Shown: in pieces, positions 7,489 through 47,300 of the stretch
Layout: every line of letters begins with the position of its first letter
Position numbering within the stretch: position 1 is the stretch's first letter
The notes under the pieces: model-generated
The model's input: only the letters and a program-made list of their open reading frames with translations
Told to the model about the DNA's origin: nothing
Database searches by the model: none
NCBI GenBank assembly: GCA_021234155.1
Contig: JAJEKV010000113.1
Span: 2,028,325 to 2,092,324, forward strand
DNA from: Isoetes taiwanensis
Taxonomy: Eukaryota > Streptophyta > Lycopodiopsida > Isoetales > Isoetaceae
DNA length: 64,000 nucleotides
Direction: 5' to 3'
Translations under genes and position numbers: made by a program

Positions 7489-7514
7489 TCGATGGATCTA
7501 GATGATGAACATTC

Positions 7515-11925: not shown

Positions 11926-13130
11926 TGGATGTTTCTTGTGCCTCGAATTCAAATAACCACATCTCCTAAAAGGTGCATCAGTTCAAGGCGGGACCTATGT
12001 CCTTGGATTCCTCTCATCGAGAGCTTTCTAAGGAATGGTAATTTGCTATCATTTTGTCACCATTGGAGCTAATGTGATCAAAATGGAGAATCTTTGTGGA
12101 ATCTTAAGGAACATATTGACTCTTCATAGAATCTTTGGGAATGTTGAGAGAATTTAAGGGAATTTTTGTAGAATCTCAAGGACTATGAGGAATATTATGA
12201 GAATCTAGTGGAATCTTAAGAGAATCTTGGAGAATCCTTATAGAATCTTAGGAAATCTTCATAAAATCTTTGGGAATCTAGGAGAACCTTTATAGAAACT
12301 TGGAGAATCAAGAGGAATCTCAAGAGCCTCAGGGGGTCTTCGTAGAGCCTTAGAGAATCTAAAAGAAATCTTTATGAAAACTTAAAGAATCTAGAGAAAT
12401 CTTAAGAGAACCTGAGGAAATTTTCATAGAATTTTGGAGAACATAAAGGAATCATATGGGAATCTTGGAGAATCCTTATAGAATCTTAGAGAACCTAACG
12501 AAATCTTCATAGAATTTAAGGGAATCTTTATCACGCTCTGATGCTTGTCGTTTCTTTAAGATCATGAACCACCCAAACCAGCTTGCCTTGTAGCACATGC
12601 CACTACTACGATCTCGAGATTGCCGACCGATGTGGCTTTTAAAACTTTGGACATCTTCATTCTGCTTTTCCGTCCCTTGGCAAGATTCAAACAGTAATTC
12701 CAAACTGCATGGTCATTGCAACATATACTTGCATTGTAGGGTAAGGGGCAGCTTAGGTGTCTGTATTTTTTATGGAAAAATTATGATTTAAATTGGACAC
12801 GTGTGAGCATACAAGAAGTTTGGAAGGAGGTAGTCTTTTCTGGAAGTTTCGAGCATGTGCCATAAGATATTCCCAGGAACACCACGTAAAGTTCAGTTCA
12901 CCTAAGTTTCACCTCTATTCTTCTACCATATATAAACGCATAAACATCTGGGTCAGCCGATCAAATTGCGCTTTAGGCGCCCGAGGTCGAAGGTGATCAA
13001 AAGGTATGGAAGTTAAGGGCGCATCCATGTTAGGATTGTAGGCTTAAACGACAAAAAAAACTAAGAGGAGTTCGAATTTTGACTAGATTCACTCTAAGGT
13101 CTTCGAAAGCTATAGGATCTGGGATTGAGG

Positions 13131-13475
13131 TCAGAAACTAAAAAGACCACTTAAGAGCTTTACGCTCCTTAACAAGCAAAGGGCAGCCGATTCTTTTTTA
13201 AGGATAGAGTGAAATCGAGACTGTGGTTTTTTTGTTCTGCGGATGCTTTGATATTTGCCGCTTTTGTTTTCTGTCCAAGAAATTATTGTATGATTCTTCA
13301 ATTGGTATTTGTTTACATTAGATCTATCTAATACCAGAAAGACACCATGAACGTATTTTCTCCCAATAGCTGGCTCGCTAGAATCCTCGAATTGCATAAA
13401 CTTTTGCTTCTCCTTGCTATGGATCCATTTCCAATGCCTATTTGGAAACAGTGGGCTAGAGTATGCTATATTCAT
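13131..13475 (-). pseudogene. Conserved minus-strand open frame in right arm A
   Basis: A 114-codon frame, the longer counterpart of 6242-6511. The block containing VFLVLDRSNVNKYQLKNH is unchanged, while the residues before it differ through small indels. No family was recognised. It is open in both copies despite the surrounding divergence, a modest argument that it once encoded protein. Confidence 0.3.
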
Positions 13476-14090
13476 TTGCGATTCTCTGGATTAGAACGGG
13501 ATGCTCTAGAAGTTTTTCCTTTTTGCAACAGCTTGATAGCTATTAGACAATATTTGGTGGCCTTTATTCATATATCGGCTCTCCAGTTCACTGCAAATTT
13601 TTGGCAAGCATCTTCCTTAAATCCTTCTTAAAGAACAATAACATGGTCTGCACCCTTCAAAATTATGAATTGTTATGTTTGCAGGAAACCAGCATGCAGT
13701 TGGAATCCAGACTGTGTCCATAGGTGCTTATGGATATAAAGCTTTCATGCATCATTTGGAATTAATTTGATCAGCCTGGAGCTAGTTGTCAAGGCATTCA
13801 AATAAGATAGGACTTGTCTAAACTTCTGATATCACTATCACTATATATATGTTTACATTAAAGCTCAAAGGTTGTTTACACACCTATGCATCCTCAAGCA
13901 TCTAAAAGCCCAGATACCGGTGGAGATCGACATATATTTTGGGGCGACGGTTGAGATGAGGGACGATCTTACTTGGCCCACATTGATTTCATCTTGATGC
14001 CATCGGGTGGCTTATCTCGCCATATTGATCGGAATTAAGATCCTACATTGCCTCGAACTTTGAGGAGAGGCTTTTAAAAGGTTTTATATT

Positions 14091-14155
14091 GTTAAGGGGA
14101 TTTGAACCCTAATCATTGCCTCCCAAAACCCCATTCTAACCACTAGACCAAGCAT
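14091..14155 (-). repeat. tRNA-derived (SINE-head-like) segment
   Basis: The minus strand reads GCTTGGTCTAGTGGTTAGAA, then a G-rich stretch, then AGGGTTCAAATCCCC. These match polymerase III A-box (TGGTCTAGTGG) and B-box (GGTTCAAATCC) patterns at tRNA-like spacing, but the 5' acceptor strand cannot pair with the 3' side. It is therefore a tRNA-derived repeat head or pseudo-tRNA rather than a tRNA gene. Confidence 0.55.
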
Positions 14156-14381
14156 TATTTCATTAAAAATAAAAATGTTTTATATATAGTTAAGGGTATT
14201 CAAACCCTAATGTTTCTAGAATGTTTAAGATTGTTCTAGAATTTAGGGCATGCATAGATGCAAAAAAGAGTCTCCTTTACTAGTATATAAGGAGGCTATC
14301 CACATGATTATAGGCATTCTGGTTCTTGGCTAGAAAGTTTTAAATGCTCTAGAAAGTTCTAGGATTTTGAAAAAAATTATA

Positions 14382-14501
14382 GAATGTTCTAGAAAGTTCG
14401 GAGGTGTTTTAGAATATTATAGAATATTCAAGAACATTCTCGATGGATCTAGATGATGAACATTCTAGAATGTTCTAGATAGTTCTAGAAAGTTCTAGAA
14501 T
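14382..14501. promoter_or_regulatory. Extended heat-shock-element-like array
   Basis: Four-unit perfect blocks at 14382-14399 and 14422-14439 are followed at 14458-14500 by GAA, TTC, GAA, TTC, one GAT, then TTC, GAA, TTC, GAA at unbroken 5-nt spacing. This satisfies nTTCnnGAAnnTTCn several times over. Binding is not shown. Confidence 0.5.
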
Positions 14502-21560: not shown

Positions 21561-21639
21561 AGCTAGAACCCATCCTACCTACATTTCAAGAATAGTTAGA
21601 CTCTTGATCCCTAGAGGCATCAAAAGATTAAAGCTATTA

Positions 21640-24363
21640 TATATATATATATATATATCTACATATACATATATATTCACTGTCCACTGTTTAGTTTTCC
21701 TTTACCATCTCTGTAATAGGATTACTTCTAAGATTTAAGGGTATGACCTGCACTAGAACTATGTTTAACAAACTTGCTAGAGCATTTTTTGCAGGATTGT
21801 TATCTTTGCCTCATAACTAGCGTTTAAACATTAAGTTTAATAGCACATGGTTGAAGCCGCCACTGCTGATTACCCAGTAAAATTTAGCTGGGTAAAGTCC
21901 CACTTTAAGCCTAAAGATATAGCCAAGATGGAATATAGAGGAACTGTTTTCCTTGAAGTGGGGAACCAGTATGGTGCCTTATCTTCTATACCTATTTCTA
22001 AGTATGGTATAAATGTCTAAAGGTAGATATTACCTAACCTTTATATTGGGATGCTTACAATAGAAAAATGGTCTATTTTGGTAAGACACTTAAGCAATAG
22101 AAAGTCTTTTTACCAAATAAGAACTTGACACCTAAGGGGTAAACTAGCCCCAAGGTACAACCTAGGGTAGCACTACGAGGAGGTCTTCCTTATGACAGAG
22201 CGTAAGTGTGCATAGCAGGGTAATATGGAATGGTAAGGTTTGATAATTAACACTAATGATGTGAAAAATGGAAGATAGTGTATTCGCACATATATGCAGA
22301 AGAAATTATATCTACGTACACGCATGCCCTACCTAAAGGACATGGCATTTAAGGAGCTTTGCATGAGTCGGATTGCGCCAAACGGATATAAGCATACCAT
22401 TTTAGGTTTTTTGACCTAAAAAAAGTGATCTAGAGTTCCAGAACTAGTATTCGCCTGCGGATCTACGCAACCTTGCCGCGGCCGAAAATGGATCTCAAGG
22501 ACGATTTTGATCAGTTGAAACATGAGAAGGACCTCGCCGTCGTGAGACTTGGTGGACTTGGAATCAAGGATCGATTCATACTACGCCATATACCGTAAGT
22601 TTCTATTTTTGTTTTACTCAATTTTGAAAATGTGGATAGAAAGAGATCTGAATGTGGTTGCCCTAGAATCGATGAGCCGAGTCGTAAGAACAAGATTTCT
22701 CCGTAAGAAGAGGAAATCAACATCTTCCTAGAAAATCTTCAAGCATTGAGTATCAATCCTGAAGCGCCAAGTCTTGATAGGTCTGAGCGCCAAAAAATTG
22801 ATTTGCATTTCGCCAGCAATTATCTAGCTCAAGGGCACTCCTATCAACCAGATTGTGGATGTGAAAAATGCCTACTACTTGAGGATTTTGCAAGGCAAAG
22901 ACCCTCGGATAATTTAATTCTCAAAAAGGAGCATTTTGGGTCCTGGGCTTCACATTTCTCGACTCCACAAGTTAAACTTTGGAAAGTGATTTTTCTATTG
23001 CTCTTCCTCGATTCAGACATGCCTGTGCCCAAAGGTTCTCCTCTAACAATGGGCCACAAAGGCTTTAACTAGTCTCAATTCTCACAAAAAGTAGTCTATC
23101 AATGACACAATATGGCAAGCGTATGGAATCACATAAAGCGACATTTCTAGAGCTACTCTCAACTAAATGGTTATCGTGAGCTGGTCCGAAGCCGGGCGGC
23201 AAAACTGGCTAAGCAAGAAAGAATGGTGGAATACAGAGATACATCCCCAACATAAACGCCGCTGATATTTCCGACACAGTTAACTTGACTGATTCTACTC
23301 CAAATATACTTAATCAGGAATACAATGAAGTTGATGAAGACTTCTCGGATTCTGATGGCGTGCAACCTAATCAGGTTTTTTATAGCAATAATAGTCTGGA
23401 CCTATAATGAGTGTCTACTATACATAAGGGTCGCTACCTACCCATATGTTCATCTACTGTTGTAAATTTCTATTCTGCTATTTTCTTGTTACATATGTTT
23501 CTGCACTATTGTTCTTACATTGAAGATCTTTTCTTTTGCTTGGGCAAAGGGCGAAAAGCCATGATGCTCCACTGCTTACCTGTCGTCCCTTACCTATTTA
23601 CCTTTTTCAGCTTCAACTTAGGTGGTATTGGTTGATGCGTGTAACCTGAAAGCTTCTTTTTTTCCCAAAGCTTTGGATTTGGTCTAGAAGATTCTTATGT
23701 TTTTGCAGCTCAAAAAGATACATTATATTTGGTTTTCAGATTCTCTAGTTTACCGCTTATATAATTTTCTCAAGAAGTGCCAAATGGTAAGATCCTATCT
23801 CAAAATCCTAGTCTGGCTTTACAAGTCCCATCTTTTCGTAAAACAATATATGTCGACAGGTTTAAAACTCGCACGCCTATGCATACCGGGATAGTTTTCT
23901 ATAATGGCCTCTTAAATTTTTGAAAAATGAAGAATCTTCTTCAACTCATGGTCTATAGCTGTTTGTTTTTTGCTGCCTGTGTACTTGACTAAATGTTTCT
24001 ATAGGCTTTTCTGTAATGAAATGATTTTTTCTGATAGCACAATACATGAATAGTTGGCAATTAAAAAACAACAAAGGTTAATGGATCTTTTCAGATAACA
24101 TGACAAGGCCAAAATACATGCCTAAACCCATCTAATACTGCATAACTTCTGAGATCTCAGCATAAGGCTTAAATATATCTGTAATAGCGCATGTGAAAAT
24201 TAAAAGTTTTCCTAGGCTACATTGTCTTTAACAAAGGCTTCCACTTAGAATAAGGTTTGAATTATTACTGGCCAAGTCCAATAGTTCTCACGGGGCCCCC
24301 ATGGCTTGACCATGGGCCTGATAAGCTTAGGCCTCTGGGAGGCTAAGCAAAACTGTTTTATAT
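21640..24363 (+). repeat. Composite B, left direct repeat (pseudo-LTR)
   Basis: Colinear with 28623-31324 over its full length. The first 900 bp are nearly identical between copies. Later parts differ by small changes that cluster at CAG and CTG. This copy is followed by the RT unit. Confidence 0.88.
22630..23407 (+). pseudogene. Broken copy of the element's partner ORF
   Basis: It corresponds to the intact 255-codon frame at 29606-30373 but is interrupted by many small indels. Examples against the right copy are CTGCAG lost near 22705, TCAG read as TCGT, and CTGG read as CCG. Recognisable fragments include DLHFASNYLAQGHSYQPDC, the CGCEKC motif, and the C-terminal region ending in SNNSLDL with the same TAA. 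It is either a decayed copy or one damaged by consensus error. Confidence 0.7.
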
Positions 24364-25434
24364 ATTCCGTGACTTCAGGGAACTAGTTGTACTGGTTCTG
24401 GCCTCTGTGAGAACATTCCTAAATTAACTCTGCACTACATCTTTAGATATATTTTGAAACTAATTGATCAAAGTTTTTCGATACTAACTAGTATTATATG
24501 TAGGCTGCTGACCACAATGACACTGAGGAAAATTTTCAGCCAAGGAGCAGCAGATAAGGATTATCAGATGAACTGGGGACTTGATACGTACTGACAAAGA
24601 TTATGATTTACTAAACAAAGTAAAGGTAATTGATTCTGTCAAAGATTAGAAAACTCGGACCGCACTCAAAGATTCTTCATCCTTCAAGGAAAGCAACTGG
24701 CCAAGGTGATATCTCAAATAGCTATGTTTTTGGGCACTAACAATATCCTTTGCTTTTAGCATCAAAGTTCAATGAGGTCAAATATGACCTTGAAAACCTC
24801 GCGACCGCTTCTAATAGGACGCACACTTGCGTTGTAATTCCTACGCCTATATTTAGTTGGTTAAAACCGACAAAGGAAGAATGTCCTCACCTTCATTCAA
24901 GGCTTTTCTAACGTACCTTTAGAAAAGCAAATGGGCGTAAAAATCACTAATCCTCCGCCGCTAAATAAAAATATCATAGACCAGCCCCAAGCTACGTACT
25001 AATATATATATGATAATTGCCTTTGATCTACGTACCTAACCGGGATGAGAGAACGAGAAGTTCGGCAGCATTGACCAGATGTCGCTGACTCCAATAAATG
25101 AATGTACCTATGATCCCTTGGATGACTATAAACTTAAAATGTTTGAATCAAGCACTGTCGGGCCGCTTTCCCTATCATTTCTCCAAGACTCAGGAGTCAT
25201 TATTGTTAGGACAGTACTTAATCATGCCCTATGGAAATCAAAACTGGGAATTATCAAGACCCTCAAATGAAGAAACTTGGATAAAAGCTTAGTCGAATCA
25301 CACCCTCAAGAAGTGAGGGGGGCATACTATGATGCCTTTAATAATCCTTACAAGAAAAGTGATAAAATGGAGGTGGATCTCGCCATTTACCACCTGTGAT
25401 TCTTTGGAAAAAGAGTGTGAAAAGGTGATGGCTG
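24364..25434 (+). other. Composite B, upstream part of the RT unit
   Basis: Coding-like plus-strand fragments occur in changing frames, such as AADHNDTEENFQPRSSR near 24504 and KDYDLLNKVKVIDSVKD near 24595. At 25079-25292 two overlapping frames are open. There may be exons of the RT protein or of a separate ORF here, but the boundaries cannot be set. Confidence 0.35.
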
Positions 25435-25857
25435 ATGGGACAAAAGATCACATGGCAAAAAACGGGTAAGAGAAAAAGAAATGATTTCTATATTAAAAAG
25501 ATATGGAGAACTCACTGTCCCTACATAAAATGTAACTGCCAAAAATACACTAGGAGGAAGAATGACTGCATGGATGGTGGTATTAAATGGTTTGACCATG
25601 CCATCTGGTACTTACTGAATAATCTTGAATTCGTTTGGCCCACTTTACCTGCTACTGCCAGATTCGTGCGCTTTAATGCACTACTTCGAACTGAGGCCAT
25701 GCACACTGCTATAATAGCCTACATTGGTTTTCTGAGGGTCAGAAAGCTTTTATTTGATATGACCAAAAGATATGCTGAAGATCAAACTGCAGACCTTAAC
25801 ATGGAATTTGGTAACACCAAGTCACCTGATGTCCCGAAAACCATCCTAATCTATTAA
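25435..25857 (+). CDS. Element ORF upstream of the RT, unrecognised
   Basis: 140 codons from ATG to TAA. The N-terminal 45 residues are very basic with a CPYIKCNC cysteine pattern. The rest is hydrophobic and helical-looking (WYLLNNLEFVWPTLPATARF, then AIIAYIGFLRVRKLLFDMTK). No GIY-YIG nuclease motif is present. It lies 0.5 kb before the RT frame and in a different phase, so it may be a separate small protein or an N-terminal exon of the RT polyprotein. Function unknown. Confidence 0.45.
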   Translation: MGQKITWQKTGKRKRNDFYIKKIWRTHCPYIKCNCQKYTRRKNDCMDGGIKWFDHAIWYLLNNLEFVWPTLPATARFVRFNALLRTEAMHTAIIAYIGFLRVRKLLFDMTKRYAEDQTADLNMEFGNTKSPDVPKTILIY

Positions 25858-25874
25858 ATTCTCCGATCAAGTAA

Positions 25875-26137
25875 GACACCCACTACAACAACCGTTTTGA
25901 AGCTTCCACATCCAAAAGGAAGCAACCCGTGCTTGCTGAGAGCAATGACATACTCCTTCCACCTTCTGTCTACAAAAAACCTGTTTTACTGCGCACTCCT
26001 AACAGCAATAGCATTATTGATATCAGCGAAAATTCCAATCATAGTGGAGGTGCTGAAAATTCTGTTACTAAAGTCAACATGGCTGGTCCTTCACGCACGG
26101 ACGGGATACAAGGAAACAAGATAGTATTCTGATCTAT
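25875..26137 (+). CDS. Probable exon just upstream of the RT exon
   Basis: An open frame between TAA at 25872 and TGA at 26130, with no ATG at its start. It encodes a low-complexity, Ser/Asn-rich linker-like stretch (DILLPPSVYKKPVLLRTPNS and following). A consensus 5' splice site GTAAGT lies at 26138, eight bases after the stop. The frame does not join the RT exon directly. A one- or two-base error in the CTG-containing TTCTGATCT at 26127-26135 could account for that. Confidence 0.4.
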
Positions 26138-26404
26138 GTAAGTTTTACTCACAAATAGGGATCTCTTGTATTTCTCAAAGTTCTAAAATGTTACTTTTAC
26201 ATTCATGTCTTTATTTCCTGGTGATTGTCGTATGCCTGTATGTATGAATACTACACGGATTTACTTATACTATTTCCACTTGATCACAAGGGAGTGTTCC
26301 CAAAAAAAGTACTAAGCATAACCCTGTCATATGAAACAGGGTCATAAGCTTCATACCTTATACCCTCACAGCCACTCTTTTAATAACTGCAAACCTACTT
26401 GCAG
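26138..26404 (+). other. Putative intron in the Penelope-like element
   Basis: 267 bp from GTAAGTTTTA to CCTACTTGCAG, AT-rich and with stops in all frames. It would join the upstream linker-like frame to the RT frame, which has no ATG at its beginning. Retained introns are documented in Penelope-like elements. Confidence 0.45.
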
Positions 26405-28507
26405 ATTAAGAGAAGAATACTCAAAAAGAATGCTGAAGGAAGATGGATACTTAGTACTATAAAGGATGCACAAGATATTAAGTACGTGCATTTCACTTTC
26501 TTTTCTAAATCCATGGATAAGATCAGATTTGACTTAGCCTTCAAAGAGGCCCTCTGCCAGTTTGAACCAGAAAAAGGGCAAGAAATTATTAACAAAACAA
26601 GATTTGGATGGAGATTTGTTAAGAATCTGAAGGGAATATTATACAAACCAAAAGCGGTTTTTGCTGGCACAGAACCAATGACATGCCCCTGCAAAAACCC
26701 TAATCTCAGCCAATTTATTGATGAGAAAATAGGGCATGTGAGAACTACTGATCTCAGGATAGTACATGATAAAACCTTAAGGAAGTGGCTTGCAATAGGA
26801 CTGAATCATATACCAGACCACCCGTTCACTATGAATACATTCAAATGTGAATTGGAAAAAACTATCGAGCAGTTTTTTATGGTACACAGGTACAACATGC
26901 TCGACTGGACACAAGGAAATGTCCAAAATGTCAAAGATTTGATCTTTACCACTGCTGAAAAAATGGCTAAAGATTACGTTGATAAAGAAAAATTACACCA
27001 GAAGAAGTTTATGATTAATGACTCTAAGGTGCAGAAGAATATAGAATGGTTAAACAATAACCTTTATATTGCAGGTATTGACAAGGCTAGCAATAATCCA
27101 TCATTTATTTGTCCTGCTCATATCAGAGATGAAGCTTATAAAAGACTTGATAGCCATGATTTCTGCAAAATGGAAATGAATGCAGAAGAAATCAAAGTAA
27201 AAACAGCATGGGAGATCCAAGAATTCATAGGTATGCGGCCTCCCTTTAGTGATGTCTTACCATACATGCTCAGTATTTTTAAAGCACACAAAAACGAATA
27301 TCGTTGGATAACTAATGCACACAATACAATATTCTCCTTGCCTGCTAAAATCATAGCAGCAGGCTTAAACTCAATGATTGATTTATGGCCACTGGTCTGT
27401 CAGGAAGAATGTGCTAAGTATAATATGTTCTACAAAGAAAAAGTGAAAGCATCATGGGTAATCAATTCAGTTTATGATTTGATCTGTAATTTACCCAGCA
27501 GTATCCATGAAGTATTCGTGGCAGACATCACCAAATGCTACGAGAACATACCGATTGAAGGGGAGCTGGGAATTTGTTCCATAATCAGTTCTTTCATCAG
27601 CATGGTCTGGCATAGCCAAAGAAAGAAACAGAATAATCAGCAGCTATGGTATAGTATTAAAAACAATGAGGAAATTGAGATAAAATGGCTGCATAAGAAA
27701 CCAACTGGAACTAAGTGGAATAAACTTGATCAGGAGCTATTTACAAAACTGAACTGTTGGCTGCTTAGGAGCTGCTACCTACAGATGGGAAACAATATAT
27801 GGAAGCAAACAAGAGGAATAGCTATGGGATTCGCATGTAGTCCTGGTTGGTGCAACGCTTATTTAGCATGGTTTGAATGTGCTTTTATATTACAGTTACT
27901 AAAATCTGGAAAAAGAGAGGAAGCTTTGACCTTTGGCCACATTAGCAGATATATGGATGATTTGCTTGGAATAAATTGCAAATATCTCAGACAATATTTA
28001 GGGCTAGATGAAACAACACATAGTAAGCTTTGCATATATGATCTCAGGCATCTTAAAATCAAAGATGAAACATGCTATTGGGAGAACAACAGGTTGTGGC
28101 AGAAGAAAGGCAAAAAAGTGGATTTTCTCAACGTAACAATTGAGATAATCAACCCAATTCACGGTACTTTTGAAATATACAGGTATGATAAGAGGTTGAA
28201 GTTGCCCTTTCCCACATCCAAGTTCATACATGCAGATGGATGTAGGCCTTATCACCAAGCATGCAGCGTGATAGTCTCACAAATTATGCCATACCTCTAC
28301 GTTCATAGTAATCCAGTAAAAGCAGCACAGGATATTCTGGGTTTAATACAAGCTTTCATCCGAAAAGGATTTCACTCCAAGGACGTATGGAGAATCACTA
28401 TCAAAGCATTAAATGAGGGGAATTTTCCTGGTCTGCATTTCGAATTGGCAAACATGACTACTATTCTACTATCCTACAGGTATTTCATATTCTCACAAAT
28501 GCTTTAA
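26405..28507 (+). CDS. Penelope-like reverse transcriptase
   Basis: About 700 codons, uninterrupted. Numbering from the TTG at 26399: CPC (96-98) and GHVRTTDLRI (112-121), an N-terminal signature of some Penelope-like RTs; DKASNNPSF (229-236) and FKAHKNEYRWIT (294-305), the pre-catalytic fingers motifs; catalytic motif A FVADITKCYENIP with Asp376; motif B QTRGIAMGFACSPGW (470-484); motif C YMDD (518-521); VDFLNVTIEI (574-583); and the thumb region PYHQACSVIVSQIMPYL (617-632). It copies element RNA into DNA, probably at a nicked target or DNA end. No GIY-YIG endonuclease follows. The frame begins at a splice-acceptor-like TTGCAG; upstream stop TAA at 26384. Open length and motifs suggest recent activity. 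Another donor-like site, CAG|GTATTT, lies at about 28480. Confidence 0.93.
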   Translation: MKRRILKKNAEGRWILSTIKDAQDIKYVHFTFFSKSMDKIRFDLAFKEALCQFEPEKGQEIINKTRFGWRFVKNLKGILYKPKAVFAGTEPMTCPCKNPNLSQFIDEKIGHVRTTDLRIVHDKTLRKWLAIGLNHIPDHPFTMNTFKCELEKTIEQFFMVHRYNMLDWTQGNVQNVKDLIFTTAEKMAKDYVDKEKLHQKKFMINDSKVQKNIEWLNNNLYIAGIDKASNNPSFICPAHIRDEAYKRLDSHDFCKMEMNAEEIKVKTAWEIQEFIGMRPPFSDVLPYMLSIFKAHKNEYRWITNAHNTIFSLPAKIIAAGLNSMIDLWPLVCQEECAKYNMFYKEKVKASWVINSVYDLICNLPSSIHEVFVADITKCYENIPIEGELGICSIISSFISMVWHSQRKKQNNQQLWYSIKNNEEIEIKWLHKKPTGTKWNKLDQELFTKLNCWLLRSCYLQMGNNIWKQTRGIAMGFACSPGWCNAYLAWFECAFILQLLKSGKREEALTFGHISRYMDDLLGINCKYLRQYLGLDETTHSKLCIYDLRHLKIKDETCYWENNRLWQKKGKKVDFLNVTIEIINPIHGTFEIYRYDKRLKLPFPTSKFIHADGCRPYHQACSVIVSQIMPYLYVHSNPVKAAQDILGLIQAFIRKGFHSKDVWRITIKALNEGNFPGLHFELANMTTILLSYRYFIFSQML

Positions 28508-28523
28508 CTTGTATAGATGACTA

Positions 28524-28573
28524 GAAGGGTCCCTATGGTAGTATAGGGACCCTTCAAACCCTTTAGTACTACC
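28524..28573 (+). promoter_or_regulatory. Hairpin with potential pseudoknot after the RT stop
   Basis: GAAGGGTCCCTAT (28524-28536) pairs perfectly with ATAGGGACCCTTC (28543-28555), leaving a six-base loop GGTAGT. That loop is fully complementary to ACTACC at 28568-28573, allowing an H-type pseudoknot. It begins 17 bases after the RT stop and lies between the RT and the right direct repeat. It could be an RNA signal for RT binding or 3' end formation; function is inferred. Confidence 0.6.
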
Positions 28574-28622
28574 ATTAGTGGACCTTTTTCTGTCATCCGG
28601 AAGGAGGTAGGGAATTTTTTGT

Positions 28623-31324
28623 TATATATATATCTACATATACATATATATTCACTGTCCACTGTTTAGTTTTCCTTTACCATCTCTGTAATAGGATTAC
28701 TTCTAAGATTTAAGGGTATGACCTGCACTAGAACTATGTTTAACAAACTTGCTAGAGCATTTTTTGCAGGATTGTTATCTTTGCCTCATAACTAGCGTTT
28801 AAACATTAAGTTTAATAGCACATGGTTGAAGCCGCCACTGCTGATTACCCAGTAAAATTTAGCTGGGTAAAGTCCCACTTTAAGCCTAAAGATATAGCCA
28901 AGATGGAATATAGAGGAACTGTTTTCCTTGAAGTGGGGAACCAGTATGGTGCCTTATCTTCTATACCTATTTCTAAGTATGGTATAAATGTCTAAAGGTA
29001 GATATTACCTAACCTTTATATTGGGATGCTTACAATAGAAAAATGGTCTATTATTTTGGTAAGACACTTAAGCAATAGAAAGTCTTTTTACCAAATAAGA
29101 ACTTGACACCTAAGGGGTAAACTAGCCCCAAGGTACAACCTAGGGTAGCACTACGAGGAGGTCTTCCTTATGACAGAGCGTAAGTGTGCATAGCAGGGTA
29201 ATATGGAATGGTAAGGTTTGATAATTAACACTAATGATGTGAAAAATGGAAGATAGTGTATTCGCACATATATGCAGAAGAAATTATATCTACGCACGCA
29301 TGCCCTACCTAAAGGACATGGCATTTAAGGAGCTTTGCATGAGTCGGATTGCGCCAAACGGATATAAGCATACCATTTTAGGTTTTTTGACCTAAAAAAA
29401 GTGATCTAGAGTTCCAGAACTAGTATTCGCCTGCGGATCTACGCAACCTTGCCGCGGCCGAAAATGGATCTCAAGGACGATTTTGATCAGTTGAAACATG
29501 AGAAGGACCTGCTTCAAGTCAGTAGACTTGACTTGGAATCATGATCGCATTCATACTACGCTATATACTGGTAAGTTTCTATTTTTGTTTTACTCAATTT
29601 TGAAAATGTGGATAGAAAGAGACGGTGAATGTGAGTTCTTAGAATCAGATGAGCGCTCAGAGTCAGAAGAACAAGATTTCCCTTCTGCAGAAGAAGAGGA
29701 AATCAACATCTTCCTAGAAAATCTTCAAGCATTGAGTATCAATCCTGAAGCGCCAAGTCTTGATAGGTCTGAGCGCCAAAAAATTGATTTGCATTTCGCA
29801 AGCAATTATCTAGCTCAAGGGCACTCCTATCAACCAGATTGTGGATGTGAAAAATGCCTACTACTTGAGGATTTTGCAAGGCAGCACCCGGATACGACTC
29901 AAAAGGAGTATTTTGGGTCTGCTCACATTTCTGATCTCCACAAGTTAAACTTTGAAAGTGATTTTTTCTATTGCTCTTCTGATTCAGACATGCCCAGGCC
30001 CAAAGGTTCTCCTAACAATGGGGCCACAAAGGCGGAACTAGTCTCAATTCTCAAAAAAGTAGGTCTACTGAATGAATATGGCAAGGCAGATGGAACTGCC
30101 ATAAAGGACATTTCTAGAGCTACTCTCAACGAAATGGTTATCAGAGCTGGTCTGGAAGCCGAAGTGGCAAAAACTGTTGCCAAAAGAAAGAATGGTGGAA
30201 TACAGAGATACATCCCCAACATAAACGCTGATATTTCCGACACAGTTAACTTGACTGATTCTACTCCAAATATACTTAATCAGGAATACAATGAAGTTGA
30301 TGAAGACTTCTCGGATTCTGATGGCGTGCAACCTAATCAGGTTTTTTATAGCAATAATAGTCTGGACCTATAATGAGTGTCTACTATACATATGGCTGCT
30401 TTTTACTGATCTATATGTTCATCTACTGTTGTAAATTTCTATTCTGCTATTTTCTTGTTACATATGTTTCTGCACTATTGTTCTTACATTGAAGATCTTT
30501 TCTTTTGCTTGGGCAAAGGGCGAAAAGCCATGATGCTCCACTGCTTACCTGTCGTCCCTTACCTATTTACCTTTTTCAAGCTAACTTAGGTATTGGTTGG
30601 ATGCAGGTAACCGGAGCTTCTTTTCCCAAAAGCTTTTGATTTGGTCTAGAAGATTCCATGCTTTGCAGTTCTCAAAGATACATTATATTTGGTTTTCGTA
30701 TTCTCTAGTTTACTGTTTATAGTAATTTTCTGCAAGTACAAATGGTAAGATCCTATCTCAAAAACTTATTCAGTTTTACAAGTCTGATCTTTTTTCAGAA
30801 AACAATATATGGTCAGATTGTGTTTTGAAACTTCAGAACAGCTATGCATACTCGGATAAGCCATAATGGCCTCTTAAATTTTTGAAAAATGAAGAATCTT
30901 CTTCAACTCATGGTCTATAGTCAGTTGTTTTTTGTCACTGTACTGACTAAATAAGCTCTATAGGCTTTTCTGTAATGAAATGATTTTTTCTGATAGCACA
31001 ATACATGAATAGTTGGCAATTAAAAAACAACAAAGGTTAATGGATCTTTTCAGATAACATGACAAGGCCAAAATACATGCCTAAACCCATCTAATACTGC
31101 ATAACTTCTGAGATCTCAGCATAAGGCTTAAATATATCTGTAATAGCGCATGTGAAAATTAAAAGTTTTCCTAGGCTACATTGTCTTTAACAAAGGCTTC
31201 CACTTAGAATAAGGTTTGAATTATTACTGGCCAAGTCCAATAGTTCTCACGGGGCCCCCATGGCTTGACCATAGTCTGAGTAAGCTTAGGGCCTCGAAGG
31301 CTAAGCAAAACCTGCTTATATATA
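28623..31324 (+). repeat. Composite B, right direct repeat (pseudo-LTR)
   Basis: Full-length partner of 21640-24363. This copy retains an intact ORF and ends in a (TA)n tract that runs into ACAAGCATTTGTACTATG and an AAGATTCT array. Confidence 0.88.
29606..30373 (+). CDS. Penelope-like element partner protein (ORF1-like), unrecognised
   Basis: 255 codons, ATG to TAA. Residues 1-40 are strongly acidic. At 79-84 there is CGCEKC (three cysteines, possibly metal-binding). Residues 141-158 (TKAELVSILKKVGLLNEY) weakly recall a SAP-type DNA-binding helix pair. Residues 189-201 are basic, and the C-terminus is acidic and Asn/Ser-rich. An upstream ATG at 29464 opens a short frame (MDLKDDFDQLKHEKDLLQ...) that ends near a GTAAGTTT site at about 29571, so the true protein may have a spliced, coiled-coil-like N-terminus. 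Presence in both direct repeats suggests it belongs to the element. It may act as a nucleic-acid-binding structural protein, but this is inference. Confidence 0.6.
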   Translation: MWIERDGECEFLESDERSESEEQDFPSAEEEEINIFLENLQALSINPEAPSLDRSERQKIDLHFASNYLAQGHSYQPDCGCEKCLLLEDFARQHPDTTQKEYFGSAHISDLHKLNFESDFFYCSSDSDMPRPKGSPNNGATKAELVSILKKVGLLNEYGKADGTAIKDISRATLNEMVIRAGLEAEVAKTVAKRKNGGIQRYIPNINADISDTVNLTDSTPNILNQEYNEVDEDFSDSDGVQPNQVFYSNNSLDL

Positions 31325-31790
31325 TACTATATATATATATATATATACAAGCATTTGTACTATGAGGGAAGTGTACTTGAGTCAAATGTAATGTATCGCT
31401 AAAATATAGATTTGCTAAGTTTCTAAGAGTTCTAAGTATACTAACATCTGAATTAAGACTTCAATATCTCCAAAAAGATTCTATAAGATTCTTCGGTTTT
31501 CCTGAATCTATCAAGATTCCCCAAGATATGCAGTATTCCCTTAAGATCATACAAAGATTCATTGCAAGCCACACCCAATGTGAATGATATACCAAGATTT
31601 CCTCTTTAAGATCCCCAACAAAACAATGCTAGAATATGCTCTCCACTTTTAAGATCCCTCGCAATGCTTCTCGAAGTTTAAGATTCCTTTGAAGGCACAT
31701 GATGTATATGGTGTCTATTCCATAAACTCCAGATTTCATGAAGATTTTCCTAGGTTCCTTAAGACTCTACAAAGACTCGCTATTCAAGCA
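31325..31790. repeat. (TA)n junction plus AAGATTCT-rich array
   Basis: (TA)n to about 31347 is followed by ACAAGCATTTGTACTATG, then from about 31480 AGATTCT/AGATTCC phrases every 10-25 bp. The same order, (TA)n, ACAAGTCTTTGTACTATG and an AGATTCT array, occurs at 47355-48030. Confidence 0.6.

Positions 31791-40437: not shown

Positions 40438-40472
<35 letters not shown>
40255..40472 (+). repeat. Left half of a dispersed repeat ending in (TA)n
   Basis: The stretch from AAAAGCCCCAAATAAGGGGA through AATCTCTACC to AATATAATTGTATATAT and (TA)n matches 52014-52420 in reverse complement. In that copy AAAAGCCCCAAATAGGGG, GTTCTACC and AATATAATTGTATATATG keep the same order. The (TA)n tract at 40421-40472 leads directly into composite C. 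Confidence 0.65.
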
Positions 40473-40473
<1 letters not shown>

Positions 40474-40964
40474 TAGCTATTTACTAGGATCTAATCTAGC
40501 AAAACACTATTACTCCAAACACTAGCACCTCGCCAGAGCTTGGAGAAGGTCCGTCTCATGCTACCTGTGCCCATCCCACGTGATCCTCGTACTATTTTTA
40601 ATTTTTAGTTGTTATAAATTGTGAACATAAATAACTAACCACATGGGCTACCTAGTAGAGGACCGTGATTTCTCAAGCCCCAAAACCATGTATCTTAATG
40701 AAAAGTAGCTGCAAAATAATTCAAGAATTCAAAGTAATCTTACTTGTCATAAATTAATCTAACCACTTAACACTAAAGTCACACTCAGAGAAGACCTGGG
40801 ATTTCAAGTCCCAAAACCACGCTTCCTCAACAATGCAAAGTAGTAGCGACAAAAGTTTCAAGAAGTATCATAAAACTAAGCAATTAAATGCAAAGTAGAA
40901 TACTTAATGAATTAATTGTGTATACCAAAAACAATAACTTGTGAAAGTGTAGACGCATAAAGCA

Positions 40965-41156
40965 TTACCGCCATAAATTGTTCTTGGTTATTCCATGTGA
41001 CTTCCATGCGTTAACCGCAACCATGCTAGCAAAAGAAGAGACAATTGGAGGAGAGATCCGCACTGTACCAATCATGCAAACGCTAGCAAGTAAGAATCCC
41101 AGAACGATGTAAGGGCCAAAGGTACATGGGTCTCTCGCTTTATCACCGATCACCAA
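40965..41156 (-). CDS. Exon-like frame with a membrane segment (composite C, left arm)
   Basis: 63 codons on the minus strand with no ATG at the start. FGPYIVLGFLLASVCMIGTV is a good single transmembrane helix, and a second hydrophobic stretch (PPIVSSFASMVAVNAW) follows. The corresponding stretch at about 44820-45010 in the right arm is broken by indels. No family recognised. It would be the last of three minus-strand exon candidates in the arm. Confidence 0.35.
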   Translation of the reverse strand: MVIGDKARDPCTFGPYIVLGFLLASVCMIGTVRISPPIVSSFASMVAVNAWKSHGITKNNLWR

Positions 41157-41979
41157 TTGTATCCTTTTGCCCTCGCAGCTACATTTAACAGAGAAAAGAA
41201 AGAATCGAATAGTAGTTCTAATGAACTATGTTCATGTAAACCTATACAAAATTAATTCATGGAGCATTCACAATCACAAAATTGTAGTTAAATGCACGTG
41301 GCAGCTTTTTCAAGGCATGTACAACCAAGAAATCTATACCATGCATGCCCATATGGTCTGGCATTTGTCGGATTGCCATAATAATATATAGCCAAAGATC
41401 ATGATCTTAGAAACAAAGCATAAAAATATTTAAGCATTTTCCAAGTTCACAATCGATAATAATTCCAATTTCAGGGTCATAAGGTAACATAGTCATAGAA
41501 AGATCATACCCATATAATCATAGAAAGATCATATCATTCACATAGAATATGTCAAACCCTAATGATAATTGCTTGATCTATCATGCATTTCTAACTCCGA
41601 TATTCGCAGACCGAAAAGCTCCAAATCCATAACTGTAATATCAGGAATCGATAGAGTAGGGCCATCGATTTGTGTCATAAAATTTCCTATGCATGGTGGA
41701 ACTTCCTTGCAAAACCATGGTGCTGCATAGAAGTGGCACCAATAAACAATTCATTCCAAATATTCGCCATGATTGCTGTAAAACCGATTTGCCTAGCTCC
41801 ACTTTGATCCATTCCTTGGCGCTTCTTTCCATTTTCTGAGTACAACCCAGCATTTATACCGTGAAAAATATGAGAGCCTCAATGAACAACATTTATTTGG
41901 GTCTCCGCTTACCGAGCACCCTATCATCAAGTAATCATTAACAAGGTAATGACAAATTATATATAACAATGCAAAATAC

Positions 41980-42177
41980 CTGCCCTATGTTTATATAATC
42001 ACATCGCAGATCCATCATCAGATGCAGAGATCTCTGTGTTTGCCAAAGGTACCCGGGTTGATCCGCAAAGCCGTATTCTAGCAGGCACGCATCATCAACA
42101 AAATTTTGAGTCGCTTCTTTCAGCATTTTACACATGCTTCTAAATGCGTGCCCAGCGGTTTTCACGCTGTGCTTCAT
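41980..42177 (-). CDS. Exon-like frame beginning with ATG (composite C, left arm)
   Basis: Minus strand: ATG at 42177 and 66 codons (MKHSVKTAGHAFRSMCKMLK, then EATQNFVDDACLLEYGFADQ) ending exactly at a CAG|GTATTT donor at 41980/41979. The composition is clearly protein-like. The right-arm copy at about 45857-46050 is recognisable but frameshifted. Family not recognised. Confidence 0.4.
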
Positions 42178-43496
42178 GGACGGCTTTGCTATCCGGGTTA
42201 CATCCGCCGGAAACCTTTAACTGGAGACTGGCCACCCATCAACGACCGTTTTGCCCTGGCGTGGGCGCTACATATTTTACGCCATCGTAATCAATGCATA
42301 TTGGCCCTAATCTTTGTAGGTACACGCCCATTTCTCAGTAAAATCCAATTCTGTATTTTACCAAAATACAAAATACATTACTTTTCACGCACAATTGCCA
42401 TGGTATTATATTGGTCCATTATAAGGAAACGGGCTAAAAAGACCCCATGTAGATAAGAAACATTTTCTTTTCTTTTTACTTTTACAAAAAGTGACAGACA
42501 GATGCATTGCATGCACTTGCATGCATGCAAAGAAAACCCAAGTGGCTCATTTCAAAACAAAATATTTATTTGAAATCCACATCTGTTTCAACTTCCCATG
42601 GAGTTTTGGGCCATGCTCCCATGTAAAGGTAGCACGTATGTTAGAGTAAAAACATCCAGTAAAAACAAAACAATGGTTGCCAAACCATCCTCCTATAATT
42701 TCAAGAATGGGGAACAAATTTAGCAACACTCCCATCCAACATGTTTTTTCTTGCTATACAAAATCGGTGACTACAATATTTTTTTCTCCATGAAAATGTC
42801 TTACCCAAGATAGAATGTTATTGAGTGTATTTTCCATATTATGGTATTACCCATATTGCCACAACATGATATTCTTGGTGCTTACAAGCAAGGCAGTTAC
42901 ATACCCAACATGTGACTGCCTTTGTTGAAAATCAAATCCTAACTGAAGCTTATTATGTATCAACAACACTACCCACCTTTGTATAAGTAATATGTGTGAG
43001 GCAAATGTAGACTTCATTTAGCAAGGGCACATCCTCTGTTAATGCCAGGCCATCTTTTGGCTCCACATAAGTGAATAATCAAGCCCTCAAATAACAAATC
43101 CATAGTTTGCTCCACCCATATTCAAGTATTAAATTTGCTTAAGGGAAAATTTTGACCTCATGGGTCACCCCTCAGCTCACTATAACAATACAATTGATAT
43201 TACATCCGCTTGTTACCATATGCCATTTGGCAAACTAAGTGCAAAACCACAAAATATCATGGCATTTGTACAACAAAGACAAATTTTTTTAGGGTCAGGA
43301 AAACTTTGAGCCCTCGGGCTTTTTTAGAATAAAGCAACCTGCATAGTTGGCTTATAAAGCTTAGGCAAGGCAAGGCTAATCAAGTAACTAGCATAAGGAG
43401 CTTCCCACCCATATCGTAAGTGGAGTCGTAGGAACTTCCCACTATTCTAGGCTATGAAAGTACACCGAGATAAAATTTCCAATTTATATATATATA

Positions 43497-44312
43497 TGTA
43501 TATATATATATATAGAAACCTACCTCCAACCTGTAGAACAATTTATGTGTTAACAATCAAAGATAATTATTATTTCGTATAGTAGCGCTAAGGTACCTAA
43601 ATTTTATGTCAGCTAGGACTCGCTCTCACCAGATTTTGCCCAGATGATAGTGAGGCACAAATCAAGATATTTAGTATAGCCTCAGGAGGGACCTCTTCAA
43701 GAAAGATCCTTCACTATGAATTTTTGTATGTGCATGCCTTATGTTTTAGGTAAGTAGCAACAAAAATATGATACAAATGTATGGCTTCCATGCTTGAAGT
43801 GGCGGCGTATCATACAACCAGATTAAAGTAGTATCCAGAATCCTTTGAATTAAAAAACAAAAACTACCAATGTAGCATGCGATACAATGTCTCGGGTTTC
43901 CATGTTTGAAGCGATAGATCATACAATCCGTGATAAAAGTAGTATCCGTGAATTTCAACTTAAAAAATCCAAAACTCACAATGTAGCATGGTTTGGAAAC
44001 ATTTTTGATTCCCAGAATAGATGAACTCTTGTTAGTTCAAAGAGTGACTAGCAAAATAACATCAAGCATAATTCACTAGATTATAAGTGTACATTCTTTA
44101 TGGATACTTAAAGTCCTTCACCCACCCCCTTAATGAGAGCCAAGCTATTGACCCTAAACCAAGCTGCAGCAAGAATTGAGGACTATAAGTTATATTAAAT
44201 TACCGCGGTTCCAGAGAAAATGTTATTGTAAAGCAGGCTGCAGCTTAGTAAGGTATTAGTATTACTGTAAGGTTATCCGGCCCTAGAACAGAAAAAAATG
44301 TAAGTTTCAAAG
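43497..44312. other. Spacer between the two arms of composite C
   Basis: About 0.8 kb starting in a (TA)n tract. A 77-codon minus-strand frame (43746-43979) contains an imperfect internal duplication, with two similar stretches about 130 bp apart around CATGCTTGAAG/CATGTTTGAAG and CATACAA. No gene was recognised. Confidence 0.4.
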
Positions 44313-47300
44313 ATATATACTAGCTATTTACTAGGATCTAATCTAGCAAAACATCATTACTCCAAACACTAGCACCTCGCTAGAGTTTCGGAGAAGGTTC
44401 TGCCCCGGCGCTACCCGTGCCCATCCCACGATCCTCGTACTATTTTAATTTAGTTGTTATAAACTAGAACATATCAACTAAATCCGCCATATACCTAGTA
44501 GAGGACTCTGATTTCTCAAGCCCCAAAACCATGTATTCTAATGAAAAGTAGTTGCAAAATAATTCAAGAATTCAAAGTAATCTTACTCTTGTCATAAAAT
44601 TAATCTAAATCCACTTAACACTTAAAGTCACACCTGCGAGAAGACCTGATTTCAAGTCCCAAAACCACGCTTTCCTCAATTTAAAGTAGTAGCGACAAAG
44701 TTTTAAGAAGTATCATAAAACTAAGTAAATTAAAATGCAAAGTAGAATAATTTAATGAATTAATCAGGTATACCAAAACAATAATCAGAAGTGTAGACGC
44801 ATTACATAATGCTATAATTGTTCTTGGTTATTCCATAGACTTCCATGTTAATCAAGAACCATGCTAGCAAAAAGAAGAGACAATTGATGAGAGACCCGCA
44901 TCATGCAGCCCAATCATGCAAACGCTAGTAAAGAATCCCTGTGAACGATAGTAAGGGCCAAAAGGTACATTGGGTCTCCTCACTTATCACCCATCACCAA
45001 TTGTATCCTTTGCCCCTAGCTACATTTAACAGAAAGAAAGAAAGAACCTGAATAGTAGTTCTAATGAACTATGTTCATGTAAACCTATAAATGTGTACCC
45101 GCTAATTCATGTGAGCATTCACAATCATCACAAAATTGTAGTTAAAATGCATGGCAGTTTTTCAAGGCATGTACAACCAAGAAATCTATACCAAGCATGC
45201 CCATATGGTCTACATTTGCCGGATTGCCATAATAATATATAGCCAAAGATCATGATCTGTAAAACAAAGCATAAAATATTTAAGCATTTTCCAAGTTCAC
45301 AACGATAATAATTCCACTTCAGGCTAATATAAGCGTAACATAGTCATAGAAAGATCATACCATAATATAGAAAGACTTCGCGGTCATTCACATAGAAGGC
45401 AAGTCAAAACCCTAATGATATCAATGTTTGATCTATCATGCATTTCTAACCCGGAGCATTCATAATTCGAAAAAGCTCCAAATCCATAACTAAAGCCATT
45501 GTGAATCGAATAGAGTAGGCCATCGATTTGTGTCATAAAAATTTCCTTGTATGCATGGTGGAACTTCCTTTGCAAAACTATGGTGTCAGATGAAGTGGGC
45601 AACTTCAATAAACAATCATTCCAAATATTCAAAGAAGATTACAAAACCGACGGCCTAGCTCCAATTTCGGATCCATTCTTTATACTCTTTCCATTTTCAG
45701 TAGCACAAACTCGAAAGCATTTATAATGTAAAAATATGAGAGCCGCCTCAATGAACAACATTTATTTGGGTCCGCTTAATCGAGCACCCTATCATCATCA
45801 AGTAATCATTAAATAAGGTAATGACAAATATACATAACAATGCAAAATACCTTTTTGTTCCATGTTTATATAACCGCACAGATCCATATATCATTGTATG
45901 CAGATTCCAGTTTAAGCAAAGGGGTAACTCCCAAGTTGATCTCGGCAAAGCCAGATTCGAAAGTAGGCACGTATCATCAACAAAATTTTGAGTCAGCTTC
46001 TTTCAGCTACTACACATGCCGAATGCGTGCCCAGCATGGCTTTCTACCAAAGCAGGCGGTGTCATGGATCTAAGCCATATCCGCTATGTTACATCCGGAA
46101 ACCCTAATCCGAGCATTCCACACCCATCAACTATCCGTTTTTCCTTTATGGGCTGCCACTGGCGCTTAATGTAACCGCCAATGATATTGGCCCCAAATCT
46201 TTGTAGGAAAAATGTGAGACGCCCATTTCTTAAAATCCAATTTTGCATTTTACCAAAATACAAAAATACATTACTTTTCATACATACCTTGCCATGGCAT
46301 TATATTGGTCCATTATAAGGAAACGTGGGCTAAAAAGACCCCATGTAGATAAGCAAGAAACATTTTTCTTTTCTTTACTTTTACAAAAGTATTGCACGCA
46401 TGCATTGCATGCACTTGCATGCATGCAAAGAAACCGCTTGCCCATTTCAAAACAAAAATATTATTTGAAATCCACATCTAGCCTAACTTCCCATATTTTA
46501 ACATATGCTCCCATGTAAAGGTAGCACGTATGTTAGAGTAAAAACATCCAAAACAAAACAATGGTTGCTTCCAAAACCATCCTCCATAATTTCAAGAATG
46601 GGAACAAATTTAGCAACACTCCCATCCAACATGTTTTTTCATATAGTGTACCGTGATTACAATATTTTTCTCCATGAAAATGTCTTACCCAAGATAGAAT
46701 GTTATTGAGGTATTTTCCATATGGTATTACCTATATTGCCACAACATGATATTCTCTTGTTACAAGCAAGGCAAAGGCTTATACAATCTAACATGTGACT
46801 CCGCCTTTGTTGAAAATCAAACTCAACTGAAGCTTATTATGAACAACAACACTACCCACCTTGTAAGGCAGCAATATGTGTGAGGCAAATGTAGACAAAT
46901 TTCATTTAGCAAGGGCACATCCTCGCTAATGCTGGGCCATCTTTATTCCACATAAGTGAATAATCAAGCCCTAAATAACAAACTATAGTTTGCCCACCTA
47001 TATTCAAGTATTAAATTTGCTTTTGTTGAAAATTTGACCTCATGGGTCACCCCCGAGCTCACTATAACAATACAATTGATATTACATCCGCTTGTTACCA
47101 TATGCTACGGCAAACCAAGTGCAAAACCACAAAATATTGGGCGCAGACATTTGTACAACAAAGACAAATTTTTTAGGTCGGGAAAAACTGAGCCCGCTTT
47201 TTAGAATAAAGCAACCCGTATAGTGGGCTTATGCTTTGTGGGCAAAGGCCACCGGGTAACTGTGCATAAGGAGCTTCCTACCCATAATGTATGGAGTCAG

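What the first reader, a model, noticed from the sequence alone, without database searches (positions are those of the whole stretch)
21638..31324. Penelope-like retroelement in a plant window, with pseudo-LTRs and an open RT
Seen: an uninterrupted RT frame of about 700 codons with DKASNN, HKNEYRW, Asp376 in motif A, motif B and YMDD, flanked by 2.7 kb direct repeats that start and end in TA tracts. Known: Penelope-like elements form tandem or partial copies with direct repeats and are patchily distributed in plants. Inference: a young, possibly active member of a poorly described plant lineage, with two or more proteins and a large (2.7 kb) repeat.
Basis: partly seen in the sequence, partly recalled or inferred. 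Interest (0 to 1): 0.85.

Follow-up and report, generated by a model that had tools for sequence, protein, structure and literature searches.

The report
Three-part Penelope-like retroelement in quillwort genome
A plant genome, probably that of a quillwort, holds at least hundreds of copies of an unusual jumping gene whose copying enzyme is related to Penelope-like elements and telomerase but which lacks their usual DNA-cutting part and carries extra, unidentified proteins and very long end repeats.

Summary
In detail: 21,648-31,325 is R-I-R, two direct repeats of about 2.7 kb around an intact reverse-transcriptase (RT) frame of about 700 codons. In the window's own genome (1.66 Gb; by assembly size probably Isoetes taiwanensis) 63 related RTs were scored (50-100% identity, 48 without a stop) and a 9-residue RT motif occurs 401 times. 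Relatives share one plan: a first exon inside R, a 540-residue exon ('N', no known family), an RT exon, a covarying RNA structure with a GGAGGTAGG motif, then R, mostly at (TA)n. All three proteins look selected. All 18 aligned RTs match a fetched element (L010) with a GIY-YIG endonuclease before its RT and 904-bp direct repeats, that is, a Penelope-like element (PLE) of the permuted kind; host telomerase comes next, LINE and Copia RTs do not match. Copies form head-to-tail arrays. No endonuclease was found with the family, no hammerhead, no telomeric repeat. Exon phases suggest exon 1 is spliced either to N or to RT (inferred; no RNA data). So: an endonuclease-less variant of permuted PLEs with an extra protein. 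In the window the left repeat and N exon are broken, probably partly assembly noise; that this copy is active is not shown.

The parts
21648..24365 (+). Left direct repeat (R); starts in a TA-rich stretch, holds a broken copy of exon 1 (exon end 23,374, AATCAG|GT) and the first part of putative intron 1
21638..21676 (.). TA tract at the left edge (target microsatellite plus R start; exact border not resolvable)
24504..26137 (+). N exon (484-562 codons in 14 relatives, no known family); acceptor ATGTAG|GCTGCT; frame broken here, pieces 25,067-25,396, 25,429-25,854, 25,875-26,129
26138..26404 (+). Putative intron 2, GTAAGT ... CTTGCAG
26405..28507 (+). RT exon: C-x-C / GHVRTTDLRIV N-terminal part, RT core, stop 28,505-28,507
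28519..28604 (+). Conserved RNA structure after the RT stop: outer 7-bp stem, inner 8-bp hairpin, CCGG..GG
   Evidence: window coordinates mapped by hand from the alignment
28597..28611 (+). CCGGAAGGAGGTAGG motif directly before the right repeat
   Evidence: window and 18 of 19 loci
28623..31325 (+). Right direct repeat (R)
29597..30340 (+). Exon 1 (intact here): acidic N-terminal part, MPRPKG...KAELVSILKK domain, ends ...QPNQ|GT; open frame runs on to 30,373
31317..31347 (.). TA tract at the right edge

Best explanation
This is a Penelope-like retroelement related to the permuted PLEs (endonuclease before the RT), but without the GIY-YIG endonuclease and with a conserved 540-residue protein (N) and a further first exon. 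Shown: R-I-R architecture with a first coding exon inside R; N and RT exons in I; a covarying RNA structure and GGAGGTAGG motif before R; setting mostly at (TA)n; head-to-tail arrays; low dN/dS for exon 1, N and RT; RT and its C-x-C part alignable to a permuted PLE. Inferred: transcription starts in the left R. Exon 1 is joined in frame either to N, which has its own stop, or to RT, giving two proteins with a shared N-terminus, loosely like gag and pol. The RNP binds the structured 3' RNA, the RT copies the RNA at nicked or broken (TA)n, and multi-unit or R-to-R copying gives repeats and tandems. The step that opens the target is unknown: N, a host nick, or an enzyme in trans.
For: All 18 aligned RTs match L010 (E 3e-10 to 7e-22); the family profile scores L010 75.1 bits, host TERT 14.4, LINE and Copia at most -2.5; 200 shuffles of the L010 RT reach at most 4.6. 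L010 has GIY-YIG before RT (Pfam E=0.0075, below its cut-off) and 904-bp direct repeats, 99.4%. RT core against host TERT 16.2 bits, reversed controls negative or unreported; hhalign 37.9 against at most 24.9 in 60 shuffles of TERT. 401 exact RT-motif sites, reversed control 0; 30 of the 100 listed have a neighbour within 12 kb, all 17 pairs on one strand. N piece found before the RT in 19 of 20 fetched loci; the other stretch starts at the RT. dN/dS 0.04-0.10 (N, 4 of 5 pairs, one saturated), 0.07-0.11 (RT, 6 of 8 pairs, two saturated), 0.13 (exon 1, 1 pair); dS is above 1 in several pairs. RT-exon CAG in phase 0 in 20 of 20 (19 loci and the window); exon-1 NQ|GT end in 15 of the same 20. Structure: 96.3% paired cells, covariation 0.361 against 0.210 shuffled, 0 of 500 as high; slid controls 0.111-0.186.
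Against: One PLE only (L010, filed under a bacterial MAG; eukaryotic contamination is my inference), no tree. The TERT match is one region around motif B. Splicing rests on motifs and phases; after removing intron 2 the N and RT frames are not in a constant relation (offset 2 in 10 of 15 loci with a readable donor, 0 in 3, 1 in 2). 8 of 11 left repeat edges start at the same point, more like a true LTR than random 5' truncation, and GGAGGTAGG sits where an LTR element has its polypurine tract. GIY-YIG absence near RTs rests on scored lists, not on all copies.
Confidence: 0.75

Rival explanations
1. A full permuted PLE (Chlamys/Naiad type) whose endonuclease is present but too diverged to see, for example inside N or exon 1.
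For: RT and C-x-C part match L010; a GIY-YIG model from host sequences gives its best N score 5.0 bits, E 0.019 for 14 sequences (L048).
Against: No Pfam GIY-YIG in 14 N exons, 18 RTs (77) or window pieces; hhalign of N against host GIY-YIG 15.3, probability 0.24%; N profile does not match L010; 45 scored host matches of L010 all lie in its RT half, query 523-1019.
Confidence: 0.12
2. An endonuclease-less PLE of the Athena/Coprina kind, as reported for Selaginella and conifers, moved from telomeres to internal (TA)n.
For: No endonuclease found; EN(-) PLEs are listed for Selaginella, Pinus and Picea (passages of PMC9033089).
Against: No doubled telomeric repeat in the window or the 20 loci; C-x-C part shared with a permuted PLE. 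No Athena or Coprina sequence was compared.
Confidence: 0.07
3. A true LTR-type element: R are LTRs with fixed ends, GGAGGTAGG is a polypurine tract, N is a gag, tandems come from recombination between LTRs.
For: Fixed left edge in 8 of 11; motif before R in the window and 18 of 19 loci; order exon1-N-RT.
Against: No protease, RNase H or integrase matched by Pfam in the tested frames; R starts and ends in TA; RT matches a PLE, not Copia (Gypsy not compared).
Confidence: 0.05
4. Single-copy, domesticated RT gene with a chance repeat.
For: One intact frame in the window.
Against: 401 motif sites, 63 scored relatives, shared architecture at the fetched loci.
Confidence: 0.01

Closest known systems
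L010, a permuted PLE in a contig filed as a Planctomycetota MAG (NYSS01000008.1); by recalled traits a Naiad
   Same: RT alignable from residue 30 to 504 and at the YxDD motif, C-x-C stretch, DKA motif, direct repeats around the coding part
   Different: L010 has one frame with GIY-YIG before the RT, 0.9-kb repeats, motif A-B spacing 74 (here 85); no N match
Chlamys / Naiad PLEs (Craig et al. 2021; recalled, paper not held)
   Same: C-x-C stretch, long A-B spacing, microsatellite setting, pseudo-LTRs, no hammerhead (traits recalled)
   Different: No GIY-YIG found; N exon; first exon inside a 1.6-2.8 kb repeat; multi-exon plan
Canonical EN+ PLEs (Penelope/Poseidon, Pen_Av; PMC3846280 abstract and Results part 1, PMC11167929 parts 1 and 2 of 4 read)
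   Same: TERT-related RT, pLTR-ORF-pLTR, partial tandems, AT-rich target, introns tolerated, pLTR includes the ORF start
   Different: Those have one ORF with C-terminal GIY-YIG, pLTRs of about 200 bp (A. vaga) and, in the Anolis element, a hammerhead
EN(-) PLEs (passages in PMC9033089 and PMC12477314)
   Same: No endonuclease found
   Different: Those described are telomere-associated; here (TA)n and no telomeric repeat in the window or 20 loci
LTR retrotransposons
   Same: Long terminal repeats with a mostly fixed left edge, purine-rich motif before the 3' repeat, possible two-protein plan
   Different: No RNase H, integrase or protease found; PLE-like RT; TA ends

Membership tests
Penelope-like elements | RT closer to PLE RTs than to other RTs | tested here: met
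   Against one PLE (L010): 75.1 bits; TERT 14.4; LINE2 -2.5, Copia -2.9, LINE1 not reported. Scores, not a tree; Gypsy not compared
Penelope-like elements | RT related to telomerase RT | tested here: met
   TERT 16.2 bits against LINE -2.6/-1.7, Copia unreported; hhalign 37.9 against shuffles at most 24.9. One region; TERT exons joined by guess
Penelope-like elements | Tandem or partial-tandem copies giving pseudo-LTRs | tested here: met
   5 RT neighbour pairs within 9 kb among 63; 17 same-strand pairs among 100 listed sites
Penelope-like elements | Groups with a named PLE clade in an RT tree | not testable with these tools
   No set of named PLE sequences held; only L010 was found
Penelope-like elements | Can retain introns | tested here: inconclusive
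   Splice signals and phases; no RNA data
Chlamys/Naiad (permuted EN+ PLEs) | N-terminal GIY-YIG endonuclease | tested here: not met
   none within 796 kb between 63 scored RTs and 121 GIY-YIG matches
Chlamys/Naiad (permuted EN+ PLEs) | C-x-C stretch before the RT | tested here: met
   Invariant in 18 of 18 and aligned to the C-x-C of L010; that it defines the clade is recalled
Chlamys/Naiad (permuted EN+ PLEs) | Insertion in fingers domain | tested here: inconclusive
   Motif A-B spacing 85; L010 74, TERT about 100, LINEs 43; no usable structure model
Chlamys/Naiad (permuted EN+ PLEs) | Microsatellite insertion bias | tested here: met
   (TA)n outside 5 of 6 visible right edges; among the 8 regular left edges 4 long and 3 short TA tracts, L039 none. 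Exact junctions not resolvable
EN(-) Athena/Coprina | Telomeric repeats at junctions | tested here: not met
   No doubled TTTAGGG/TTAGGG in the window or in L034-L053
PLEs | Hammerhead ribozyme (common, not universal) | tested here: not met
   Rfam: window and 20 loci, no match at gathering score, none at E up to 10 in the element (23); pattern: none inside the element (22)
LTR retrotransposons | RNase H, integrase, protease | tested here: not met
   No such Pfam match in window frames, 18 RTs or 14 N exons

The most novel reading that the evidence does not exclude
A permuted-PLE lineage that lost its endonuclease and independently took on an LTR-retroelement-like plan: long terminal repeats with a fixed left edge that contain the first exon, a purine-rich primer-like site before the 3' repeat, and a gag-like (exon 1-N) and pol-like (exon 1-RT) protein made by alternative splicing, with N replacing the endonuclease either as a new nuclease or as an RNA-packaging protein.
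Probability: 0.3. Interest if true: 0.9.

Novelty: new variant of a known kind. Interest (0 to 1): 0.7.

Why it matters
PLEs are the third class of eukaryotic retroelements and close mobile relatives of telomerase, yet in plants they are known only patchily. A family with intact proteins, some copies with repeats about 99% identical, a covarying RNA element and a narrow target type gives a testable system for how a telomerase-like RT moves without a recognised endonuclease. N is a conserved protein with no known family.

Tried and rejected
Homologues elsewhere: phmmer and profile searches of the PDB for RT, tblastn of phages and plasmids (11, 19), scans of viral and prokaryotic contigs with the window RT or the alignments (12, 18, 81, 82) gave no relative. 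Patterns from recalled motifs: the 5 viral hits have no credible RT match (best E 2.6) and look like phage or bacterial sequence by their long frames (32, 33, 36). A further scan with L010 and a plasmid search found nothing.

Weak matches not pursued: N to an uncharacterised PDB protein, E=0.0081 over 80 columns (80); RT core to a PADLOC REase_II model, E=0.0055, and to a CRISPR-associated RT model, E=0.001-0.0015 (55); exon 1 to RPA32, E=0.22 (61); N piece to Baculo_p48, E=0.095 (4). AlphaFold2 on the RT alone was useless (pLDDT 34.8).

GIY-YIG in trans: 121 matches among 150 scored of 263 candidates; three stretches looked at carry the domain without an RT by the family profile. Hammerhead by pattern: 6 in the window against 5.6 expected. 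Fixed frameshift N to RT: rejected, offsets vary. Gene conversion as cause of the patchy repeat differences: L035 agrees with the right copy at 213, with the left at 46, with neither at 46 differing columns, so the left copy holds most changes. Assembly noise is likely (nanopore-based assembly if the host inference holds), but the 17 other loci tested also show more identical windows than shuffles, so it is not proved. Clean empty site for L035: failed; its right flank is the end of another repeat, which lies at (TA)n in 3 of 5 copies fetched.

Full report
Observation. The window holds an RT frame of 706 codons (26,387-28,504) between direct repeats 21,648-24,365 and 28,623-31,325. The longest open frame in 300 order-1 shuffles of the element was 187 codons. 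Pfam RVT_1 is found only weakly (isolated core E=7e-4), but in 16 of 18 aligned family RTs, so it is an RT.

Host. The genome behind the window has 1,658,258,908 bases in 1,110 contigs. The Isoetes taiwanensis paper gives 1658.30 Mb, 204 scaffolds and 909 contigs, with nanopore reads, racon, pilon and gap filling (passages read). I infer that host; the tool names none. Pieces of a ferric-reductase/NADPH-oxidase type gene at 3-1,568 do not contradict a plant.

Copy number. 63 RT places were scored (of 4,727 first-look candidates); 48 have no stop. Nearest to this RT are copies at 82% and 80% identity; the rest go down to 50%. A pattern for EYRWITNAH finds 401 exact sites, control 0; this is a lower bound, since some subfamilies vary there. 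N: 86 places scored of 3,429 candidates, 75 without a stop.

Architecture. I fetched 20 of the 63 scored RT neighbourhoods. A 142-residue piece of the window's N exon matches before the RT in 19 of 20; the other stretch (L053) starts at the RT. Intact N exons of 484-562 codons were aligned from 14 loci (A1). N has an invariant Cys cluster (C333, C338, C340, C350) and no family in Pfam. A first exon lies within R; in the window's right repeat it is 258 codons and intact, and it matches on both sides of the RT in seven fetched loci (L034, L035, L038-L041, L045). Its end ...(L/P)NQ|GT is found in 15 of 20 (19 loci and the window, L036 left out). Repeat lengths by BLAST were 1.6-2.8 kb, many cut by the fetched stretch, with 92-99% identity; spacing 5.6-8.3 kb; L043, L044 and L053 gave no long pair.

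Splicing (inferred). The 14 N frames begin at an AG in phase 0: an in-frame TAG directly before 11, an in-frame CAG in L045, L047 and L052. N ends in a stop; a donor lies 4-15 nt beyond it in 14 of 18 loci, overlaps it in L046, and none was listed for L034, L050 and L051; in the window it is 16 nt beyond a stop of a broken frame. RT exons begin at CAG in phase 0 in 20 of 20. Exon 1 ends in phase 0. So exon 1 can be joined in frame to N or to RT. In the window conserved RT residues (H31, F35, S36, K37) precede the first ATG codon, which asks for an upstream exon; first Met in N frames lies at residue 8-86. The offset between N and RT frames after removing intron 2 is 2 in 10 of 15 loci, 0 in 3, 1 in 2.

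Selection. dN/dS 0.04-0.10 for N (4 pairs; a fifth saturated), 0.07-0.11 for RT (6 pairs; two more saturated), 0.13 for exon 1 (one pair); dS exceeds 1 in several.

3' signal. Between the RT stop and R, the window and 18 of 19 loci have CCGGNNGG(A/T)GGTAGG, 71-129 nt after the stop (306 in one), just before the TA-rich start of R; L043 lacks it. Eighteen of these 19 stretches were aligned (the 306-nt one left out). The structure I counted keeps 17 of 20 predicted pairs: 96.3% of cells paired, 30 cells changed on both sides against 9.2 shuffled, covariation 0.361 against 0.210, 0 of 500 shuffles as high, slid controls 0.111-0.186; the count of further pair types does not exceed shuffles (20 against 19.9) and pairs with a two-sided change are 8 against 5.6 (18 of 500).

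Ends and target. Of 11 left edges inside the fetched DNA, 8 start at the same TA-rich point after GGAGGTAGG (window, L035, L039, L046, L049, L050, L051, L052); L034, L045 and L047 do not by this BLAST. Of 6 right edges, 5 run into (TA)n; L042 does not. Target duplications cannot be read in (TA)n.

Tandems. Among 63 scored RTs, 5 neighbour pairs lie 6.4-7.4 kb apart. Among the first 100 listed of 401 motif sites, 30 have a neighbour within 12 kb; all 17 pairs are on one strand.

RT relationship. A pattern from a recalled animal PLE motif had brought 16 stretches from prokaryote-labelled contigs. One, L010 (5.9 kb, filed as a Planctomycetota MAG), holds a 1,019-codon frame with GIY-YIG (residue 303-334, Pfam E=0.0075, below cut-off), then a C-x-C stretch, then RT, with the YxDD part in the next frame, all between 904-bp direct repeats, 99.4% identical. 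That is a permuted PLE, probably eukaryotic contamination (my inference). All 18 aligned family RTs match it, E 3e-10 to 7e-22. The family profile gives it 75.1 bits; host TERT 14.4; LINE2 -2.5; Copia -2.9; LINE1 not reported. Shuffles of it reach 4.6 at most in 200. The alignment joins the C-x-C stretches, the DKA motifs, the HK motifs, motif A and motif B. Searching the host with the L010 frame scored 45 places (of 1,983 candidates), all in its RT half (query 523-1019), none over its GIY-YIG.

Telomerase. The RT core profile hits host telomerase RT (found by PF12009) with 16.2 bits; two host LINE RTs score -2.6 and -1.7, Copia is not reported. hhalign: TERT 37.9, LINEs 19.2 and 17.3, Copia 17.8; shuffles reach 24.9 (TERT), 25.1 and 30.6 (LINEs). 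The match is around motif B. Motif A-B spacing is 85; L010 74, TERT about 100 (exon junction guessed), LINEs 43. TERT itself does not match L010 well (E 0.30).

What is missing. No GIY-YIG by Pfam in window pieces, RTs or N exons; a model from host GIY-YIG sequences gives at most 5.0 bits on N. 121 GIY-YIG matches elsewhere, none within 796 kb of the 63 RTs; both lists are the scored ones only. No hammerhead at Rfam's gathering score in the window or the 20 loci. No doubled telomere repeat in the window or the 20 loci.

This copy. Left-right repeat differences lie in bursts and fall mostly on the left copy; exon 1 is broken only there. The N exon is split over three frames here but intact in L035. 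I think much of this is assembly noise, but other loci too show clustered differences, so decay is not excluded.

Known or new. Reviews list EN(-) PLEs in Selaginella, Pinus and Picea and EN+ Dryad in conifers (passages). Chlamys is reported in a brown alga (passages). The paper defining Chlamys and Naiad is not held; what I say of it is recalled. Searches joining Penelope with fern, lycophyte or Isoetes terms listed no paper that by its title is about such an element; they cover open-licence papers only, and I opened few of those listed. I file it as a new variant of PLE, related to the permuted clade.

Noticed in passing
window 3-1931: Exons of a ferric-reductase/NADPH-oxidase (RBOH-like, label partly recalled) gene, with frame breaks that may be decay or assembly noise.
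   Followed up: partly
window 40466-43514 and 44313-47381: Another pair of 3-kb direct repeats (82% identity) in the same orientation, next to TA tracts; the family's proteins have no match there.
   Followed up: partly
window 4958-7514 and 11932-14465: Pair of 2.5-kb direct repeats (87%) whose differences are also strongly clustered (31 of 104 windows perfect against 0.8 shuffled).
   Followed up: partly
L010 (NYSS01000008.1): A contig filed as a Planctomycetota MAG carries a complete-looking permuted Penelope-like element with 0.9-kb direct repeats, so the record is probably contaminated by a eukaryote.
   Followed up: partly
L054, L055, L056: Multicopy genes with a GIY-YIG domain but no RT by the family profile; L056 also holds a 474-codon helicase-like frame (label from reading the sequence, not from a search).
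   Followed up: partly
L063-L067 and L035 right flank: A different repeat whose end (CCGAAGCC...) lies directly after (TA)n in 3 of 5 copies looked at, so TA microsatellites seem to be shared landing sites.
   Followed up: partly
L066: Long TATATG-type array next to a TA tract.
   Followed up: no
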